DNA of 64,000 bases, from assembly GCF_009695815.1 (NCBI RefSeq), contig NZ_VUNE01000005.1, positions 1 through 64,000 of the forward strand, given 5' to 3'. Below are positions 1 through 60,839 of the stretch, in pieces (position 1 is the first letter of the stretch; each line of letters starts with the position of its first letter). The position numbers and the translations under genes are program-made. Below the pieces are notes generated by a model. That model was not told where the DNA came from and made no database searches. It saw nothing but the letters and a program-made list of their open reading frames with translations. The DNA is from Peptostreptococcus porci. GTDB lineage: Bacteria > Bacillota > Clostridia > Peptostreptococcales > Peptostreptococcaceae.

Positions 1-2190
1 CCTCTACAGATTTCTTTTCTTCTGGTGTTAATGCTTTTGGATCACTTACTGGAACTTTATTATCTGGTGCCACTGGATTGTTTGTCGCAGCATCTGATTT
101 CTTTACTACGTCTGTTCCTGGTATTGTATCCGTTGATCCATCTGGATACTTCACTGTTACTGTTCCATCATCTCCAACTTCTAATTTAGTTCCATCTGGA
201 AGTTTTGGATCTAAGTTTTTATTCGCATCTTCAACTGCCTTTTTAACGGCTTCTTTTTCATCATTTGTTAGGTTTGTTGGTTCTGTAACTGAAACCTTTG
301 TTGATGGTGCTACTGGCTTATATTTTTCACTTTCAGCCTGCACTACTATATCAGAGCCATCAATTGTATCTACTGAATTATCGTTATAAGTAATAGTAAC
401 TTTACCATCATCACCTACTGTTATCGTAGTATTTCTTGGTAAATTTGGATTCGCGTCAAGAACCTTCTTACTTACAGCTGTTTTTTCATCTGAAGTTAAA
501 TTTTTAGGGTCCTTAACAATAATCTTTGGACTTGGAACAACAACATTTGTTTCAGAAGCAAGTGATTTTTTCACAACTTCTGTTCCTGGTATTGTGTCTA
601 TTGTTCCATCTGGATATTTTACTGTTACTGTACCATCATTTCCAACTTCTAATTTAGTTCCATCTGGAAGCTTTGGATCTAAATTTTTATTCGCATCTTC
701 TATAGCCTTTTTAACTGCTTCTTTTTCTGTTTCTGTTAAGTTTGTAGGATCAGCTACTGGTACTTTTGTTGTTGGAGCAACAGGTGTTACTGTCGCTGCA
801 TCTGATTTTTTCACAACATCTGTTCCTGGAATTGTGTCCGTTGATCCGTCTGGATACTTCACTGTCACTGTTCCATCATCTCCAACAGATACTTCTGTTT
901 TCTCTGGCAATGTCGGATTCTTTTTCTTTATTGCATCCTCTACAGCTTTCTTTTCTTCTGGTGTCAATGATTTTGGATTAGCCACTGGAACTTTGTTGTC
1001 TGGTGCCACTGGATTGTTTGTTGCAGCATCTGATTTTTTCACAACATCTTTTCCTGGTATTATATCAGCAGTTCCATCTGGATACTTAACTGTTACTGTT
1101 CCATCTTTATCTACATCAATAGTTGTTCCATCTGGAAGTTTTGGATCCAAATTTTTATTCGCATCTTCTATAGCTTTCTTAACTGCCTCTTTTTCTGTTT
1201 CTGTTAAATTTGTAGGATCAGCTACTGGTACTTTTGTCTTTGGAGCAACAGGTGTTACTGCCGCAGAATCTGATTTCTTCACAACATCTTTTCCTTGTAT
1301 TGTATCTGTTGTCTTATCTGGATAAGTTACTGTTACTGTTCCGTCATTTGACACAGATATTTCTGTTTTCTCTGGCAATGTTGGATTCTTTTTCTTTATT
1401 GCTTCCTCTACAGATTTCTTTTCTTCTGGTGTTAATGAATTTGGATCTGCAACTGGAACTTTATTATCTGGTGCCACTGGATTATTTGTTGCAGCATCTG
1501 ATTTCTTTACAACATCTTTTCCTTGTATTGTGTCTGTTGTTCCATCTGGATATTTTACTGTTACTGTTCCATCATTTCCAACTACTATTTCTGTTTTCTC
1601 TGGAAGTTTTGGTTCTAAGTTTTTATTCGCATCTTCAACTGCCTTCTTAACAGCTTCTTTTTCATCAGTTGTTAGGTTTGTTGGTTCTGTAACTGAAACC
1701 TTTGTTGATGGTGCTACTGGCTTATATTTTTCACTATCTGCCTGTACTACTAAATCAGAACCTTCTATTGTATCAACAGAATTATCTCTATATGTTACAG
1801 TAACTTTTCCGTCATCACCCACTGAAATAGTTATTCCGCCTGGTGAATCTGGATTCGCTTTAATTACTGCTTCTCTAACAGCAGCTTTTTCTTCTGTAGT
1901 CAAATCCTTAGGATTTTTTACAATAACTTTTTTGTCCGGTAAAATCAAGTTATACTCAGATGCAACTGATTTTTTTACGACATTTGATCCTTGAATTGTA
2001 TCAGTTGTTCCATCCGGATATTTCACTGTTACTGTTCCATCTTTTCCTACTTCAAATGTTGTATTCTCAGGAAGCTTCGGATTTAAATCTTTATTTGCGT
2101 CTTGCATTGCCTTCTTAACAGCTTCTTTTTCAGTATCTGTTAAGTTTGCAGGATCAGCTACGGGAACCTTTGTAACTGGAGACTTTGGAT
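1..2190 (-). repeat. Tandem protein-repeat array inside the surface protein gene, with a 1404-bp super-repeat
   Basis: Nine complete units and one partial unit are seen. Three kinds can be told apart: a long unit with an EDANKNLDPKLP segment, a shorter one with KKKNPTLPEKT, and a divergent one beginning NPKDLTTEEK or NPKNLTSDEK. The order long-divergent-long-short recurs. DNA near 281 and near 1685 is almost identical over tens of bases, an offset of 1404 bp (468 codons). This shows a multi-unit duplication on top of the single-unit repeats. Confidence 0.85.
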
Positions 2191-3139
2191 CAAATTGTTC
2201 CGACATTCTTACTGTTGGAGGATCGTTAAACTGAATTTGCACAACATTATATACTGCCTGCCCCCAAGGATTTGTAGTTTTTACTTTGACATCATAAGTT
2301 CCTGATTTGTCAACAATGCTAGTTACACTTGTTTCATTGTTATAATTATTTTCATTTGATTTTTTGTAACCAACTATTGTTCTTACTCCATATGTATCAC
2401 CAAAAGCATTTCTAAAATAGTTCTGGAATTGGTCGGTAATAGTAGAGAATTTACTACTCTTTATCTCCAAAGCCAATCTTGAATAAATTTCAGCATCAGA
2501 AACTGAATCTGTCTGTTCCTTGACAATCGGATTTGTATTGATTAGCGAATCAGTATACCCAATTATTTTGTATCTATATTGAATTGCTCCACCACGATTA
2601 TCAACTACCTTTAAATATCGTGTGTATAATCCTCCTGGCTCATGACTAAATTTACCAGCTATTTTCAAGACACCAGTTGATGTTTTTGGATCCCCTGGAT
2701 AAATCGCTGGTTCTTTTGTAAAAGTAAGATCTGATGCCCCTGTTTCAAAAAAACTTCCATTAAAGTTTGAAAATTCATTTATTGTGCCATCACTATCTTT
2801 CCCAGTTAAAATTAATGGATTTGCAATAGGATCGGCATTTTTAGAACCATCAGAAGATGTGCCTGTTGTAGGAAGACCCATCACAAAAAAGACGGGGTCA
2901 GTCGTTTCACCTTCTTTGTTATTAGGTGCAATATCTGTCTCTTCGGCATTGCTTGTAATAGTAGGAATTTTATTTCCCTCTCTAGTGCTTGACGAAGAAT
3001 TTCCGTTTGTTGATTCCCCAGCCATTGTTATACTGCTCACGCCTGGTAATTGTAACACTAACGAAAATGCCATCAATAGTGCAAAAAAGCACTTAAATTT
3101 TGAATTACGCTTTTTGTAATTCACTTTTTCTGTTTTCAT
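1..3139 (-). CDS. Large secreted surface protein with YPDG-type tandem repeats (C-terminus off window)
   Basis: The reverse strand is open from an ATG at 3139 to the left edge, more than 1,040 codons with no stop. The SD GGGAG lies just upstream. Residues 1-45 form a long signal peptide: basic N-terminus, hydrophobic core, Ala-Gly near residue 41. A Ser/Thr-rich linker follows, then a non-repetitive region to about residue 315 that looks like Ig- or cadherin-type folds. From about residue 320 there are nine full repeats and part of a tenth, each 70-80 residues. They read roughly LTxxEKEAVKKA, then a GTVTVKYPDGT core, then VVKKSD. They resemble the Rib/alpha-like YPDG repeats of Gram-positive adhesins. 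A C-terminal LPXTG signal is expected but lies outside the window; the sortase at 60944 would be a possible anchoring enzyme. Function as an adhesin or spacer stalk is inferred. Confidence 0.85.
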   Translation of the reverse strand, partial: MKTEKVNYKKRNSKFKCFFALLMAFSLVLQLPGVSSITMAGESTNGNSSSSTREGNKIPTITSNAEETDIAPNNKEGETTDPVFFVMGLPTTGTSSDGSKNADPIANPLILTGKDSDGTINEFSNFNGSFFETGASDLTFTKEPAIYPGDPKTSTGVLKIAGKFSHEPGGLYTRYLKVVDNRGGAIQYRYKIIGYTDSLINTNPIVKEQTDSVSDAEIYSRLALEIKSSKFSTITDQFQNYFRNAFGDTYGVRTIVGYKKSNENNYNNETSVTSIVDKSGTYDVKVKTTNPWGQAVYNVVQIQFNDPPTVRMSEQFDPKSPVTKVPVADPANLTDTEKEAVKKAMQDANKDLNPKLPENTTFEVGKDGTVTVKYPDGTTDTIQGSNVVKKSVASEYNLILPDKKVIVKNPKDLTTEEKAAVREAVIKANPDSPGGITISVGDDGKVTVTYRDNSVDTIEGSDLVVQADSEKYKPVAPSTKVSVTEPTNLTTDEKEAVKKAVEDANKNLEPKLPEKTEIVVGNDGTVTVKYPDGTTDTIQGKDVVKKSDAATNNPVAPDNKVPVADPNSLTPEEKKSVEEAIKKKNPTLPEKTEISVSNDGTVTVTYPDKTTDTIQGKDVVKKSDSAAVTPVAPKTKVPVADPTNLTETEKEAVKKAIEDANKNLDPKLPDGTTIDVDKDGTVTVKYPDGTADIIPGKDVVKKSDAATNNPVAPDNKVPVANPKSLTPEEKKAVEDAIKKKNPTLPEKTEVSVGDDGTVTVKYPDGSTDTIPGTDVVKKSDAATVTPVAPTTKVPVADPTNLTETEKEAVKKAIEDANKNLDPKLPDGTKLEVGNDGTVTVKYPDGTIDTIPGTEVVKKSLASETNVVVPSPKIIVKDPKNLTSDEKTAVSKKVLDANPNLPRNTTITVGDDGKVTITYNDNSVDTIDGSDIVVQAESEKYKPVAPSTKVSVTEPTNLTNDEKEAVKKAVEDANKNLDPKLPDGTKLEVGDDGTVTVKYPDGSTDTIPGTDVVKKSDAATNNPVAPDNKVPVSDPKALTPEEKKSVE

Positions 3140-23274: not shown

Positions 23275-23322
23275 CAATACACCTCACTACTAGATTTTTC
23301 AATCTATCCAATAAATATATTT

Positions 23323-23398
23323 ACCTGCAACGCAACAGTTAACCTGCAATAAAACAGTTTACCTGCAATACAACAGTTTACCTGTAATATGAGAATTT
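23323..23398 (-). repeat. Four 19-bp tandem repeats overlapping the permease stop codon
   Basis: ACCTGCAA (ACCTGTAA in the last unit) recurs at 23323, 23342, 23361 and 23380, an exact 19-base period. The 23380 unit contains the last codons of the amino-acid permease, and its TAA stop falls at the junction with the next unit. The other three extend into the gap before the ATPase gene. Confidence 0.85.
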
Positions 23399-24837: not shown

Positions 24838-25100
24838 AAAAAAACTCCCATCCTCTGACTTATGTCAGAGGACGAGAGTAAAAATTCTACTTCGTGTTCC
24901 CACCTCTATTTGTCATCACCTCACAGTGATAACCTCATTAGGTACTAACATACCTTAACACTGTAACGGGCGTCCCCGTGATAGCCTACTACTAATTCGG
25001 TACCAAACTCAAAGATGTGTTCATCATGATTCATATTGTGCTTCTCACCACCCAGCAACTCTCTGATTAACTCCACATGACTACTATTTCTTATCAATGT
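24838..25100 (-). promoter_or_regulatory. T-box leader, predicted histidine-specific
   Basis: Reading the reverse strand, Stem I starts near 25100 with the AGTA bulge, then GAGAGTTGCTGG and GTGGTGAGAAGC. The specifier region reads GAA-CAC-A, and CAC is a His codon. Farther on is the T-box region AGAGGTGGGAACACGAAG. Its UGGG would pair with a tRNA ending CCCA, which fits C73 of tRNA-His. A terminator follows: 9-base arms at 24864-24872 and 24851-24859, then a T-run. When uncharged tRNA-His binds, the antiterminator should form and the transporter be expressed. Confidence 0.9.
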
Positions 25101-25126
25101 TTTTATATTGTTTATTGTTTGAATCT

Positions 25127-25293: not shown

Positions 25294-26601
25294 TTATTTT
25301 TTCGACCATGGAACTGTCTCAACATCTCCAAATCTCAAGTCCTTAAATCTGTTGGTATATTCGCCTCTGTAATTTATTATATACAAAATCACAAGCTCAA
25401 TATAGCTAATTCCACACAAAACAATGTTCCACATCTCTTCAAAATCTAAGTGTATATTATGATTTTTTTTACTTGGATGAACCACAATATTTCTATACTG
25501 AGTAATAAGGTCGACAGAGTCCATTTTTATCTTGCTGTTGTAATTTCTACCACTTACTGCGAAGGGTATATCGTGATCTATCGAGCAGAATTTCAACAAT
25601 TCTCTAATGTTTTGATTTGCTGCCCTGTTATCGTATTCTTCTCTTGAAAACACTCGCTCTAACTCTACAAGCACCACGTATGACAACATCTCCAGTGCAG
25701 TTTGAATGGATATTATATTGTTGCCCATATTAATTCCATTTAAGGATTCGACATACCAATCCAAAATACTAGAAAAAGCATCAAAATAATAGGTTTCTTC
25801 AAGCTTTTTTGTCATAAGCGACAAATATTTTTCAAAATTATAGTAATTGGAAATAGTTGAAGTCCAATTAAACACAAATTGATAATTATTTGAGTACATC
25901 TTATGCCATGACCTGTATACTTCCTTTGAATTGCTATACCCAAAGCAATTTGGAATGGCAATAAATCTACCACATGAAAAGCTGAGGGCAATTGATAACT
26001 GTGTAATCAGCTTGTAAATATTTCTAGTGTTAAACATCGTACCATCATATTTCTCTATTTTCCCAGTATGAGTTATCACACTTCCATTACGGCTTACCAA
26101 TCTATTGTGAAAATCTTTATTGTAATTATAGCTTTTATCAATGGTTATTTTGTAATCATTAACTTTAAATTCAAGCCTCCCTGCATAGACCAAATCATCA
26201 TAATTTACTAATTTTCCTGGAATTTTGTCCATATTCAATATATCAAATTGAATGTATTGCACACTGTTATCCTTTGATTTTATAACATTATCATTTACAT
26301 ATCCGATAATCTCGCCATTATTAATACTTTCTATTTCGATACTCATCAGCTTATAACCTGAAATCTCAAGGGTTGCTTCCTTTGAAAAATTTATTAAATC
26401 AATTTCTGACAAATCTTCAAATTTGTATATTTTTGCTGAAAAATTAATTGAAACAGGCTCTGAAAGCTTATAATACAAGACTCCATCACACTTCAATTGA
26501 ATATCCGAATATATATGAAATTTTCCGGAATATATAACGAGATCCTCGCCTATTTCATTCATACAATATCTTGATTTTACTGCCTCTCCTATAATGAACA
26601 C
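25294..26601 (-). CDS. HEPN-like protein of unknown function (YopA/ApeA-like layout)
   Basis: 435 residues with no recognised enzyme name. The N-terminal half (about 1-200) is beta-rich. The C-terminal half is helical and carries RNIVVH near residue 370, the R-x4-H motif of HEPN ribonuclease domains, preceded by ELLKFCSIDHDIPFAV. A beta-rich front and C-terminal HEPN resemble ApeA-type abortive-infection and YopA-type phage proteins; this is pattern resemblance only. There is no signal peptide. The GTG start directly abuts AAGGAGA, so the true start is unclear; an ATT two codons later is better spaced. The SD lies directly behind the upstream gene's terminator. Confidence 0.7.
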   Translation of the reverse strand: MFIIGEAVKSRYCMNEIGEDLVIYSGKFHIYSDIQLKCDGVLYYKLSEPVSINFSAKIYKFEDLSEIDLINFSKEATLEISGYKLMSIEIESINNGEIIGYVNDNVIKSKDNSVQYIQFDILNMDKIPGKLVNYDDLVYAGRLEFKVNDYKITIDKSYNYNKDFHNRLVSRNGSVITHTGKIEKYDGTMFNTRNIYKLITQLSIALSFSCGRFIAIPNCFGYSNSKEVYRSWHKMYSNNYQFVFNWTSTISNYYNFEKYLSLMTKKLEETYYFDAFSSILDWYVESLNGINMGNNIISIQTALEMLSYVVLVELERVFSREEYDNRAANQNIRELLKFCSIDHDIPFAVSGRNYNSKIKMDSVDLITQYRNIVVHPSKKNHNIHLDFEEMWNIVLCGISYIELVILYIINYRGEYTNRFKDLRFGDVETVPWSKK

Positions 26602-26609
26602 TCTCCTTC

Positions 26610-26648
26610 AAAAAAACATAAACCAATCAGAGCTTTGATTGGTTTATG
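26610..26648 (-). terminator. Strong terminator after the activase gene, abutting the next gene's SD
   Basis: A perfect 13-bp stem (26617-26629 with 26636-26648), 6-base loop, then seven T residues (26616-26610) on the reverse strand. The next bases are GAAGGAG, the SD of the HEPN-like gene. Confidence 0.85.
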
Positions 26649-26697
26649 CAAAATACTAATCGAAAAACAAATTTTCTCTGCATTCCTAATTAATATA

Positions 26698-29600
26698 CTA
26701 TATCAGTCTGTTTAAATCAATAGGTTTAAAAGAATCTTCATACATTTTTTTGTCCGTTCCATTAATCTCTGAAAATGCAGTTGAAAGCATAAGCTTAATC
26801 CTGTTCAGCTGATTGACTGATGTCGCAGAAGCGTCGTAATCAATAGGAATAATATTCGCCTTAGGATATTCTCTTTTAATATTTTTTATTACACCCTTTC
26901 CAATAATATGATTTGGAAGACAACCAAATGGTTGCATACAAACGATATTATTTGTTCCCGTTTCTAACAGTTCTAACATTTCGCCAGGCAACAGCCAGCC
27001 CTCACCAGTTTGATTCCCAAGCGAAACAAATCTCTTCGTATGCTCAGCTATATCCTTAATTTTCATAGGTGGCTCAAACCTCTTGCTCTTTTTCAATGCA
27101 TAATAATATGTTGACAAATATAATTCAATCAACTTTACTATTGATTTGCCTATTATTTTCTTTTTGAAGGTAGCCTCAAGCTTCTCGCTCTGATAAATAC
27201 TGTTATAAGCTGCACAAGTGAAGAAATTGATTAGTTCAGGAACAACAGCTTCCGCACCTTCTCTCTCTATTATCGAAATAAGATCATTATTTGCTATCGG
27301 ACTAAATTTAACCAGTATTTCTCCTACAAGTCCGACTCTTGGCTTTATCTCATCAGTTATCTCCAAGCTATCAAAATCTCTTACGATACCTCTAATATTA
27401 GCTTTGTACATTTTAATATTACCAGTTTCAAGTGATTTCTTACATTTTTCAACCCAGTATTCGTACAGCTTATTAGCACTTCCAGGAATCCTTTCATATG
27501 GACGTATCCTAAGCAGAACCTTCATCAAAAGATCGCCATAGACTGCACCCATCATTATTTTATTAAAAATACCCAGAGTCATTTGTGATTTTACACCATT
27601 ATCCTCGACACCATTTGCACTAATAGATACCACTGGGACATTAGCAAATCCTGCAGATTTTAATGCTTTTCTCAAAAATCCAATATAATTTGTCGCTCTA
27701 CATCCACCACCGGTTTGAGTCATAAGGACCGTCGTATTGTTTGTATCGTACATTCCAGATTTTAGTGCGTTAATGATTTGTCCAATCACTATAATCGCAG
27801 GATAACAGGCATCATTATTCACGTATCTCAACCCCTCTTCTATTATTTCAGAGGAATTATTGCTCAAAACGACAACATTTAGCCCTGCACTCTGGAGTGC
27901 TTTTTCAATAAATTGGAATTGTATTGGTGCCATTTGAGGTGCAAGCAAGGTATGATTTGTATTTAATTTCGTATTCTTCTCATACTCTACCTTTTGCACT
28001 TCTGCCTCAGATGGTTTGATTCCATTTTTATCTCTTTCACTTATCGCAGCTTTAAGCGATCTTAATCTTATTTTTGCTGAACCAAGGTTATTACCTTCAT
28101 CTATTTTCAGCACTGTATGAATTTTAGTTCTCTCATTTAGTATTTCTTCTACCTGTTCAGTGGTAACTGCATCAAGTCCACAACCAAATGAATTTAATTG
28201 CACCATTTCAAGATTATCATGCTCGCAACAAAATGTCGCAGCCTTATATAGTCTTGAATGATATACCCATTGATCTACCACTCTTAGAGGTCTTTTCATA
28301 TCTGCAAGATGGCAAATTGAATCCTCTGTCAGCACAGCCATACCTAGTGAATTAATCAGCTCAGGTATTCCATGATTTATTTCTGGATCTAGATGATAAG
28401 GTCTACCTGACAACACTATTCCCTTTTTATTTTCATCACTTAATTTTTTAACTATTGCTTCTCCCTGTATTCTTATGTCCTGTTTGAATTTATCGTATTC
28501 TAATGTGGCCTTATCAACTGCGTTTTCAACTTCTGACAGTTTCAAATCGGGATAATAGTACTTCATAGCAGAATGAACTCTCTTCTTCAGCTTTTCCTTG
28601 TTGTTCATAGACACAAAGAAATTAATATATGTCAAATCTGAGTTTTGCAAATTATCCATATTACTCTTGATAACTTCTGGATATGAAGTTACTACTGGAC
28701 AATTGTAATGATTATCAGAATTTGGATCTTCTCTAAATTCATGAGTTACGGAAGGATAAAATATTGTTTTTATTCCCTTTTCAATCAATAGCTCAATATG
28801 TCCATGCACCAATTTAGCTGGATAACAAACTGTATCAGAAGCTATAGAGCTTATCCCCTTTTCAAAAACCTCTTTGGATGATTTCCCCGACAGTACTACG
28901 GAAAAACCAAGCTCTGATAACATAGTATGCCAAAAAGGAAGATTTTCAAACATATTTAGCACCATTGGTACACCGATTACACCTCTTTTGGCTAAGTTTT
29001 TACCAATAGGCTTGTATGCCATCAGCTTATCATACTTATATTTATAAAGATTTATGTTTTCTTTATCTCTATCAATCCTCGTATTTGTGTATATGGCTTC
29101 ACCCACTTCGCATCTATTTCCAGAAACAAATATCTCTGTTTCAGAGAATTTATTGATAGTTAAAAGACATTTGTTTGAGCAACCTTTACACCTAGTAATA
29201 CTTGTTTTTATTTCTATATCATTCAACTGATTTTCTGATAGAACATTTGACACTACCCCATTATATTTTTCTCTTGAAATCAGTGCACAGCCAAATGCTC
29301 CCATCAATCCTGCTATTTCAGGTCTTATCACTTCTTTTCCGGCTAGTCTTTCAAATGCTCTCAATACCAAATCATTATAAAAAGTTCCACCTTGAACTAC
29401 GACGTTTTCGCCCAAGGATGATATATCCCTCAATTTAATAACCTTGAAAAGTGCATTTTTTACAACAGAATACGCCAATCCTGCTGAAATATCAGAAACC
29501 GTAGCGCCCTCCTTCTGAGCCTGTTTGACTCTTGAATTCATAAAAACAGTACACCTAGAGCCTAAATCTACTGGTTTCTGTGAATATATACCGCACTGTG

Positions 29601-30999
29601 CAAAGTCGACAATATTCATTTCAAGAGAATGAGCAAATGACTCCAGAAAAGACCCACAGCCAGAGGAACACGCCTCATTTAGTATTATCTGATCGATTAC
29701 ACCATTTTTGATTTTTAGACACTTCATATCTTGTCCGCCAATATCCAAAATAAAGTCAACATCAGGATTAAAGTATTGAGCAGCTCTATAATGAGCAATG
29801 GTTTCGATTTCACCGTCATCAAGTCTTAGTGCTTTTTTGATAAGTTCCTCGCCATATCCAGTTACTGTCACTCTAGATATTCTGGCATCTTTTGGTATTA
29901 CTGAATATATTTTTTTCAATATTCCAATACTCGTATTTAGAGGGTTTCCTTCGTTGCTACCATAATGACTAAACAATATTTCGCCATTATCCCCTATTAA
30001 CACTGCTTTGGTTGTCGTAGATCCAGCATCCAATCCCAAGAAATAATTTCCTCTGTAATTTTTAATATCGACTCTAGCGACTTTCGCCTCACTATGCCTT
30101 TCTTTGAATGCTGTGTACTCTGCTTCGTTGACAAAAAGCGGGGTGATTTCTTCGTCTTCTCCATCTTCAAGTGACTCAACTGAGTTTATTCTGTCCAATA
30201 ATTCACCTACCAAAAGTGGTTCTTCATTTTCTGCAAGTATTGAAGCCCCTAAGGCAACATATAACTGTGCATTTTCTGGGAAAATGACATCTCCATCAGA
30301 TAATTTTAATACATTGCAAAATTGTCTTCTAAGCTCAGACAAAAAGTACAATGGACCTCCAAGAAAAGCCACCTTGCCCTCAATTTTTCTACCACACGAC
30401 AAAACGCTGACCGTCTGTACAACAACAGCGTTAAAAATACTCATTGCAATATCAGATTTTTTTGCCCCATCGTTTATCAATGGTTGAATATCTGTCTTTG
30501 CAAAAACTCCGCATCTTGATGCAATAGGATAAATCACTTCAAAATCCTTTGCAAGCTCATTTAATCCTGCCGCATCGGTCTTTAACAAAACTGCCATCTG
30601 ATCTATAAATGCACCTGTACCACCAGCACAAATTCCATTCATTCTCTGGTCAATGCCACCTGACAGGAAAGTTACTTTTGCATCTTCTCCGCCAAGCTCG
30701 ACAACAACATCCGTTTCTGGATGCATAAACTTTATGGCTTTTGTGCTAGAAATAACTTCCTGCTCAAATTTTATATTTATCTTTTTTGACAATCCAATCC
30801 CACCAGAACCTGTGATAACAGTTTTGATGCTAGAATTACCAATTTTTTTATATATTTCTTTTAATTGTTTTACAACAGTAGATTTTACATCGGAGAAGTG
30901 TCTTTTGTATTCTTTATAAAGGATTTCTTCTCCGTTTCTAAGAACAGTTTTAACCGTAGTTGAACCAATATCAATTCCCAAGTTATACGCTCTGCTCAT
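26698..30999 (-). CDS. Giant 2-hydroxyacyl-CoA dehydratase activase-like protein (two BcrAD/BadFG ATPase domains plus DUF2229)
   Basis: 1433 residues. Two ASKHA ATPase domains lie in tandem. The first (about 1-300) has GIDIGSTTVKTVL, GGEDAKVTFL and ICAGGTGAF; the second (about 315-590) has GLDAGSTTTKAVLI, DIGGQDMKCLKI and SSGCGSF. Then come a CKGCSNKC cysteine cluster near 600, a DUF2229-type region, and a C-terminal part resembling dehydratase B subunits (FGCLPNHI). Single-domain relatives such as HgdC use ATP to inject a high-energy electron into a [4Fe-4S] dehydratase. No dehydratase genes lie nearby, so the target is unknown. GGAGGTGAT precedes two ATGs; 30999 has the better spacing. Confidence 0.88.
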   Translation of the reverse strand: MSRAYNLGIDIGSTTVKTVLRNGEEILYKEYKRHFSDVKSTVVKQLKEIYKKIGNSSIKTVITGSGGIGLSKKINIKFEQEVISSTKAIKFMHPETDVVVELGGEDAKVTFLSGGIDQRMNGICAGGTGAFIDQMAVLLKTDAAGLNELAKDFEVIYPIASRCGVFAKTDIQPLINDGAKKSDIAMSIFNAVVVQTVSVLSCGRKIEGKVAFLGGPLYFLSELRRQFCNVLKLSDGDVIFPENAQLYVALGASILAENEEPLLVGELLDRINSVESLEDGEDEEITPLFVNEAEYTAFKERHSEAKVARVDIKNYRGNYFLGLDAGSTTTKAVLIGDNGEILFSHYGSNEGNPLNTSIGILKKIYSVIPKDARISRVTVTGYGEELIKKALRLDDGEIETIAHYRAAQYFNPDVDFILDIGGQDMKCLKIKNGVIDQIILNEACSSGCGSFLESFAHSLEMNIVDFAQCGIYSQKPVDLGSRCTVFMNSRVKQAQKEGATVSDISAGLAYSVVKNALFKVIKLRDISSLGENVVVQGGTFYNDLVLRAFERLAGKEVIRPEIAGLMGAFGCALISREKYNGVVSNVLSENQLNDIEIKTSITRCKGCSNKCLLTINKFSETEIFVSGNRCEVGEAIYTNTRIDRDKENINLYKYKYDKLMAYKPIGKNLAKRGVIGVPMVLNMFENLPFWHTMLSELGFSVVLSGKSSKEVFEKGISSIASDTVCYPAKLVHGHIELLIEKGIKTIFYPSVTHEFREDPNSDNHYNCPVVTSYPEVIKSNMDNLQNSDLTYINFFVSMNNKEKLKKRVHSAMKYYYPDLKLSEVENAVDKATLEYDKFKQDIRIQGEAIVKKLSDENKKGIVLSGRPYHLDPEINHGIPELINSLGMAVLTEDSICHLADMKRPLRVVDQWVYHSRLYKAATFCCEHDNLEMVQLNSFGCGLDAVTTEQVEEILNERTKIHTVLKIDEGNNLGSAKIRLRSLKAAISERDKNGIKPSEAEVQKVEYEKNTKLNTNHTLLAPQMAPIQFQFIEKALQSAGLNVVVLSNNSSEIIEEGLRYVNNDACYPAIIVIGQIINALKSGMYDTNNTTVLMTQTGGGCRATNYIGFLRKALKSAGFANVPVVSISANGVEDNGVKSQMTLGIFNKIMMGAVYGDLLMKVLLRIRPYERIPGSANKLYEYWVEKCKKSLETGNIKMYKANIRGIVRDFDSLEITDEIKPRVGLVGEILVKFSPIANNDLISIIEREGAEAVVPELINFFTCAAYNSIYQSEKLEATFKKKIIGKSIVKLIELYLSTYYYALKKSKRFEPPMKIKDIAEHTKRFVSLGNQTGEGWLLPGEMLELLETGTNNIVCMQPFGCLPNHIIGKGVIKNIKREYPKANIIPIDYDASATSVNQLNRIKLMLSTAFSEINGTDKKMYEDSFKPIDLNRLI

Positions 31000-31102
31000 C
31001 ATATCACCTCCATGTATCTGACAATACATCTTTACTATTTAACAAATTTTTTAAAATTATAATATTTATTGATTTTTCTAACCTATTAAATATAATAGCA
31101 AT

Positions 31103-60408: not shown

Positions 60409-60633
60409 TATCTATTCCTCCAAAATCACAAGCATATTAGCAGAAAAATTTTAAACAAAGGTGTAAAATACAAATATAGATAAAAACATAATATATTTTT
60501 TAAAACACCACTGTCCAAATATTGATATTTCACTTCTCAAAGAAATTTTCCCCTTAATTATATCATAATTTTACTGATTAATAAACAAAACAAAAACATA
60601 ATTACAAACAAATTACATCACAAATACAAAAGA

Positions 60634-60839
60634 CAAACAAAATACAAACAAATCTCTTCACAGATACAAAACAGCAAATAAATAATAAGCAAAATTCTTT
60701 ACAAATTCAAAAAAACAAACAAATAATAAGCAAAATTCTTTACAAATTCAAAAAAAACAAACAAATAATAAGCAAAACTCTTTACAAATTCAAAAAAGCA
60801 AACAAATAATGAGCAAAATTCTTCATAAATAGAAAATCA
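60634..60839. repeat. Five 41/42-bp tandem repeats upstream of the sortase gene
   Basis: Units begin with CAAA at 60634, 60675, 60716, 60758 and 60799 and share ATAATAAGCAAAATTCTTT and ACAAATTCAAAA blocks. The outer units are degenerate; a partial copy precedes them. No ORF runs through it. The surrounding 60409-60900 holds nothing else I recognise. Confidence 0.85.

What the first reader, a model, noticed from the sequence alone, without database searches (positions are those of the whole stretch)
25294..26601. Orphan HEPN-like protein, possible defence or RNase effector
The RNIVVH motif and helical C-terminus fit HEPN domains, and the beta-rich front resembles ApeA- or YopA-like layouts. 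HEPN proteins often act as RNases in anti-phage defence. It stands alone among housekeeping genes, which suggests a self-contained system.
Basis: partly seen in the sequence, partly recalled or inferred. Interest (0 to 1): 0.6.

Follow-up and report, generated by a model that had tools for sequence, protein, structure and literature searches.

The report
YopA-type HEPN gene, fixed by descent
This gene encodes a likely RNA-cutting protein whose relatives elsewhere sit on phages and plasmids, several of them beside virus-defence genes, but in one bacterial family it was gained about once and has since been inherited like an ordinary housekeeping gene, which raises the question of what job it now does.

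Summary
The ORF at 25294-26601 (-) is a real gene of 435 aa. It is a full-length homologue of SPbeta YopA: tblastn 30% identity, E 3e-35; profile-profile 100%, E 2.4e-52, over 421 columns. NCBI now names some E. coli members "YopA family protein". The C-terminal domain is very probably HEPN: R370, N371 and H375 are invariant in all 40 family sequences and in the distant homologues, and three Pfam HEPN families hit weakly, two shown to lie on that motif. Structure prediction failed (three usable sequences), so the fold is unproven. It is not ApeA: no ApeA N-terminal domain, no detectable profile match; the same genome carries a separate, genuine ApeA. The surprise is inheritance. Distant YopA homologues are rare and lie on prophages, plasmids, integrase elements and beside restriction genes. 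Here the gene is in 9/9 congeners and 56/71 family genomes, absent from other sampled families of the class, compatible with one gain on a DnaG tree, tree-congruent (patristic r = 0.96), 1.2 times as divergent as DnaG, dN/dS 0.09, usually at a recurring locus. Best reading: a defence-type HEPN RNase that became a core gene. Whether it still fights phage or has a cellular role is open.

The parts
25294..26601 (-). YopA-family HEPN protein gene, 435 aa
   Evidence: ORF; homologues in 56/71 family genomes; SPBc2 yopA homologue
26032..26601 (-). N-terminal part, residues about 1-190, mostly predicted beta; carries the invariant T177-H178 ('ITH') and the G-K/R-I motif after it; proposed sensing or autoinhibitory domain (inference)
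   Evidence: alignments; low-confidence secondary structure
25372..25809 (-). HEPN-like helical domain, residues about 265-410, with invariant W282, Y283, L303, E304, R370, N371, H375
   Evidence: low-confidence helices
25477..25494 (-). R-N-x3-H motif (RNIVVH, residues 370-375), predicted RNase active site
   Evidence: invariant R, N, H in 40/40 and in cross-phylum alignments
25297..25371 (-). C-terminal tail, GEYxNR...VPW, conserved down to E. coli and SPbeta homologues, absent in cyanobacterial ones
26616..26649 (-). 14-bp terminator-like hairpin whose T run touches the ribosome-binding site of this gene; probably the terminator of the upstream activase gene
   Evidence: hairpins in a related position in several congeners
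26698..31029 (-). upstream neighbour, 2-hydroxyacyl-CoA dehydratase activase type (BcrAD_BadFG/DUF2229), conserved neighbour in many genera
24865..25106 (-). T-box leader upstream of the next transcription unit, the amino-acid ABC transporter

Best explanation
The gene encodes a two-domain YopA-family protein: an N-terminal, probably beta-rich domain followed by a HEPN domain with an intact R-N-x3-H site. Most likely it is a HEPN endoribonuclease that works as a dimer and is held inactive until the N-terminal domain meets a signal, then cuts cellular RNA such as tRNA. The family looks like a mobile defence or toxin family; one copy was fixed about once, inside the Peptostreptococcaceae, and has since been inherited vertically as a core gene, probably with a cellular role (stress or RNA quality control) or as a permanently kept immune gene. 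Shown: homology, motif invariance, vertical inheritance, purifying selection. Inferred: HEPN fold, RNase activity, autoinhibition, physiological role.
For: YopA homology: tblastn 30% identity, E 3e-35; hhalign 100%, E 2.4e-52 over 421 columns. HEPN: Pfam HEPN_Apea matched by 22/33 members at E up to 1 (best 5.4e-4); domain alone, best HEPN_RiboL-PSP 8.4e-6, HEPN_Apea 3.7e-4, HEPN_MAE_28990 0.0079. In the window's own domain the HEPN_Apea (0.016) and HEPN_RiboL-PSP (0.064) matches both span R370-H375. R, N, H invariant. Core gene: 9/9 congeners, 56/71 family genomes, 16/23 genera, nearly always one copy; none in other families of the class sample; on the DnaG tree the absences need two changes and one origin is not excluded, none of 500 shuffles as low; 19 of 32 splits shared with DnaG (shuffles at most 2), patristic r 0.96, 1.2 times the DnaG distances, dN/dS 0.088 against 0.090 for DnaG; recurring neighbours. 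Relatives in mobile or defence settings: SPbeta prophage; E. coli integrase element with type I R-M, on chromosomes and an IncY plasmid; cyanobacterial plasmids beside methyltransferase and helicase genes; a distant contig of the phylum with TIR-SLOG and an integrase-like ORF.
Against: No Pfam HEPN match reaches its curated cut-off; no PDB match. AlphaFold2 models from three sequences have pLDDT 40-42, so the four-helix bundle is untested. No profile similarity to ApeA over the whole protein; only a weak in-register match at RN..H (P 0.03). No functional data for SPbeta YopA were found in the open library. Invariant R and H do not prove catalysis. The number of relatives whose surroundings were read is small, about eight loci.
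Confidence: 0.55

Rival explanations
1. It is a working anti-phage (abortive infection) system that happens to be kept by the whole clade: infection activates the HEPN RNase, which stops growth.
For: Distant relatives lie in R-M, TIR-SLOG and integrase settings; HEPN proteins are common in Abi systems (PMC3710099); the gene is stand-alone with no conserved partner.
Against: Core-like retention and DnaG-like rate, whereas the genuine ApeA of this genome was not found in the four congeners sampled; no PADLOC match.
Confidence: 0.3
2. It is a non-catalytic RNA-binding or regulatory HEPN protein, as proposed for MtlR.
For: Core-gene behaviour; some HEPN domains that lack the motif are thought to be non-catalytic RNA binders (PMC3710099 abstract).
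Against: R, N and H are all strictly invariant, also in mobile relatives.
Confidence: 0.1
3. Not a HEPN domain: an unrelated helical domain whose RNxxxH is coincidental.
For: No match above curated cut-offs, no usable structural model.
Against: Three different HEPN Pfam families hit, two shown in the same register, with invariant R/N/H and a conserved L-E pair.
Confidence: 0.08

Closest known systems
SPbeta prophage YopA (SPBc2p071; 'YopA family protein' of NCBI annotation)
   Same: Full-length homology, same R-N-x3-H, TH and C-terminal GxYxNR...VPW
   Different: SPbeta copy is on a prophage with an HTH gene yopB downstream; the window gene is chromosomal, vertically inherited and has no such partner
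ApeA (ApeA_NTD1 + HEPN_Apea)
   Same: Layout: N-terminal domain then HEPN with RNxxxH; weak HEPN_Apea hits
   Different: No ApeA_NTD1 match, no significant alignment with the ApeA of the same genome; ApeA is sporadic
Other HEPN families (RiboL-PSP-HEPN, MAE_28990/MAE_18760-like HEPN)
   Same: Weak Pfam hits in the domain
   Different: Scores below the curated cut-offs in the window protein; no L-PSP or other known fused domain found

Membership tests
YopA family | full-length similarity to SPbeta YopA | tested here: met
   E 3e-35; profile 100%, 421 columns
YopA family | downstream small HTH gene as in SPbeta (HTH_26) and E. coli (HTH_73); not a defining feature, as it varies among homologues | tested here: not met
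   No such gene next to the window gene or conserved among relatives; other homologues lack a recognisable HTH neighbour too
HEPN superfamily | R-x4-6-H motif | tested here: met
   invariant R370, N371, H375
HEPN superfamily | profile match | tested here: inconclusive
   weak hits to three HEPN families, best 8.4e-6 in one member; window domain 0.016, below cut-off
HEPN superfamily | four-helix bundle with R and H at one site | tested here: inconclusive
   models with pLDDT 40 and 42
HEPN superfamily | RNase activity | not testable with these tools
   needs a wet assay
ApeA | ApeA N-terminal domain 1 (PF18862) | tested here: not met
   no hit in the protein; the one PF18862 match in this genome is another gene
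ApeA | HEPN_Apea above the curated cut-off (24.4 bits) | tested here: not met
   12.3 bits whole protein, 16.1 bits domain; only the other gene passes in this genome
Anti-phage defence system | match to a PADLOC model | tested here: not met
Anti-phage defence system | protection against phage | not testable with these tools
   needs phage assays

The most novel reading that the evidence does not exclude
A mobile defence or toxin-type HEPN RNase was captured once by the ancestor of most Peptostreptococcaceae genera and converted into a conserved cellular RNase, a bacterial case of immune-gene domestication that can be tested directly by deletion.
Probability: 0.4. Interest if true: 0.7.

Novelty: new variant of a known kind. 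Interest (0 to 1): 0.47.

Why it matters
HEPN effectors are usually transient defence or toxin genes. A member that one family has kept as a core gene, evolving about as slowly as DnaG and with an intact active-site motif, implies either an immune gene worth keeping always or a cellular RNase taken from the defence pool. No function for any YopA protein was found in the open papers searched, so the family is also an unassigned effector candidate.

Tried and rejected
Searches that found little: PADLOC, NCBIfam and PHROGs gave nothing useful; PDB gave only chance hits; viral contigs gave two loci (SPbeta-like L070 and a partial E. coli-type L071). ApeA membership was rejected. An ATT start at the better-spaced third codon was considered and dropped as unsupported, since the nearest relative has GTT there. 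No empty site could be shown: lineages without the gene have other genes next to the activase, or only weak partial activase matches. Papers: no study of SPbeta YopA found; a preprint on ApeA activation by deoxydinucleotides is cited in PMC13405049 but is not held.

Full report
What is there. The ORF at 25294-26601 on the minus strand is as described, 435 aa. The window lies in a genome of the genus Peptostreptococcus as far as the nearest named relative tells: Peptostreptococcus sp. D1 carries a 96% identical copy. Between the two, dN/dS is 0.088, about that of DnaG, 0.090.

Family. A tblastn search of phage records found one match, YopA of SPBc2 (30% identity, E 3e-35). Plasmid records gave seven weaker ones, in E. 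coli, Methylophaga and four cyanobacteria. Profile-profile comparison of the family alignment with the distant homologues covers 421 columns at 100% probability, E 2.4e-52. Some E. coli copies are annotated 'YopA family protein' in RefSeq. The gene is therefore a YopA family member.

Domain. No Pfam model passes its cut-off, but HEPN_Apea is hit weakly by 22 of 33 members, best 5.4e-4. With the C-terminal domain alone the best values over 13 members are HEPN_RiboL-PSP 8.4e-6, HEPN_Apea 3.7e-4 and HEPN_MAE_28990 0.0079; in the window's own domain the HEPN_Apea (0.016) and HEPN_RiboL-PSP (0.064) matches both lie across R370-H375. R370, N371 and H375 are invariant in 40 of 40 close relatives, and with W282, Y283, L303, E304 and two others make up all the invariant columns of a 13-sequence alignment across phyla. 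Structure prediction was limited to three usable sequences and gave pLDDT 40 and 42. The HEPN assignment is thus very probable but not structurally shown.

Not ApeA. The window genome holds a genuine ApeA elsewhere (contig 1, about 284.2-285.6 kb), with ApeA_NTD1 and HEPN_Apea well over cut-off. It shows no significant alignment to the window protein, and an ApeA profile does not match the family profile; the only hint is a weak match in register at RN..H (P 0.03). The HEPN survey PMC3710099 describes ApeA-NTD1 as about 300 aa, mostly beta, fused to HEPN; the layout here is similar, the domain is not detectably the same.

Inheritance. The gene is in all nine congeners and 56 of 71 genomes of the family, 16 of 23 genera, nearly always one copy. 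In 391 genomes sampled across the class only family members have it; across the phylum two others of 397 have distant or partial homologues. On a DnaG tree nearly all lineages without it fall outside a well-supported group of 36 rows, with one exception inside (genus g5); the labels need two changes, and none of 500 shuffles is as low. One species of genus g9 (G047) also lacks it, though its relatives have it; that may be a loss or an assembly gap. YopA and DnaG trees share 19 of 32 splits (shuffles at most 2), patristic correlation 0.96, with YopA distances 1.2 times those of DnaG. The locus recurs: the activase is upstream in many genera, and an amino-acid ABC transporter or a gene that by reading is Spx/ArsC-like lies downstream; no partner gene is conserved.

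Settings of distant relatives. SPbeta yopA is followed by the HTH gene yopB. The E. coli gene lies in an integrase element, next to ssb on the chromosome, followed by an HTH_73 gene, type I restriction and DUF262 genes; it is also on an IncY plasmid, and is cut short beside IS elements in some strains; 19 of 5,426 E. coli genomes hold any of it. Nostoc and Planktothrix copies sit between DNA methyltransferase-type and helicase-type genes. A distant copy of the same phylum lies near a TIR-SLOG protein and, by my reading of the ORFs, an integrase and AbiEi/AbiEii-like genes. This suggests a defence or toxin-type mobile family, from about eight loci.

Mechanism. By analogy with HEPN RNases, which act as dimers and often cut tRNA (stated in PMC13405049), I infer a dimeric RNase restrained by its N-terminal domain. 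None of this was tested here. Whether the conserved copy still defends against phage or serves the cell cannot be settled from sequence; I lean to a cellular or dual role because retention and rate resemble a core gene.

Expression. In several other genera an extended -10-like TATGATATAAT lies tens of bases upstream of the start (read by eye). In the window a terminator-like hairpin abuts the ribosome-binding site, and a T-box leader of the next unit follows the gene.

Noticed in passing
G000 contig 1, about 284223-285620 (L080 1492-3048): A genuine ApeA (518 aa, ApeA_NTD1 E 6e-21, HEPN_Apea E 4e-17) in the same genome, downstream of a recombinase-like ORF and an HTH-like ORF (by reading).
   Followed up: partly
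26616-26649: Strong terminator-like hairpin directly against the ribosome-binding site of the gene; several congeners have an unrelated hairpin in a similar place.
   Followed up: partly
2-3139 (minus strand, open at the window end): Large surface-type protein with about 468-base tandem repeats.
   Followed up: no
23320-23389: 19-base tandem repeat, 3.7 copies, overlapping the end of the transporter permease gene just upstream of the ABC ATPase gene.
   Followed up: no
60585-60836: 41-base AT-rich tandem repeat, about 5-6 copies, in an intergenic stretch.
   Followed up: no
L078 (distant contig of the same phylum): YopA homologue in a stretch with a TIR-SLOG protein and, by reading, thymidylate kinase and synthase-like genes, an integrase, AbiEi/AbiEii-like and ImmA/IrrE-like genes: a candidate defence island.
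   Followed up: partly
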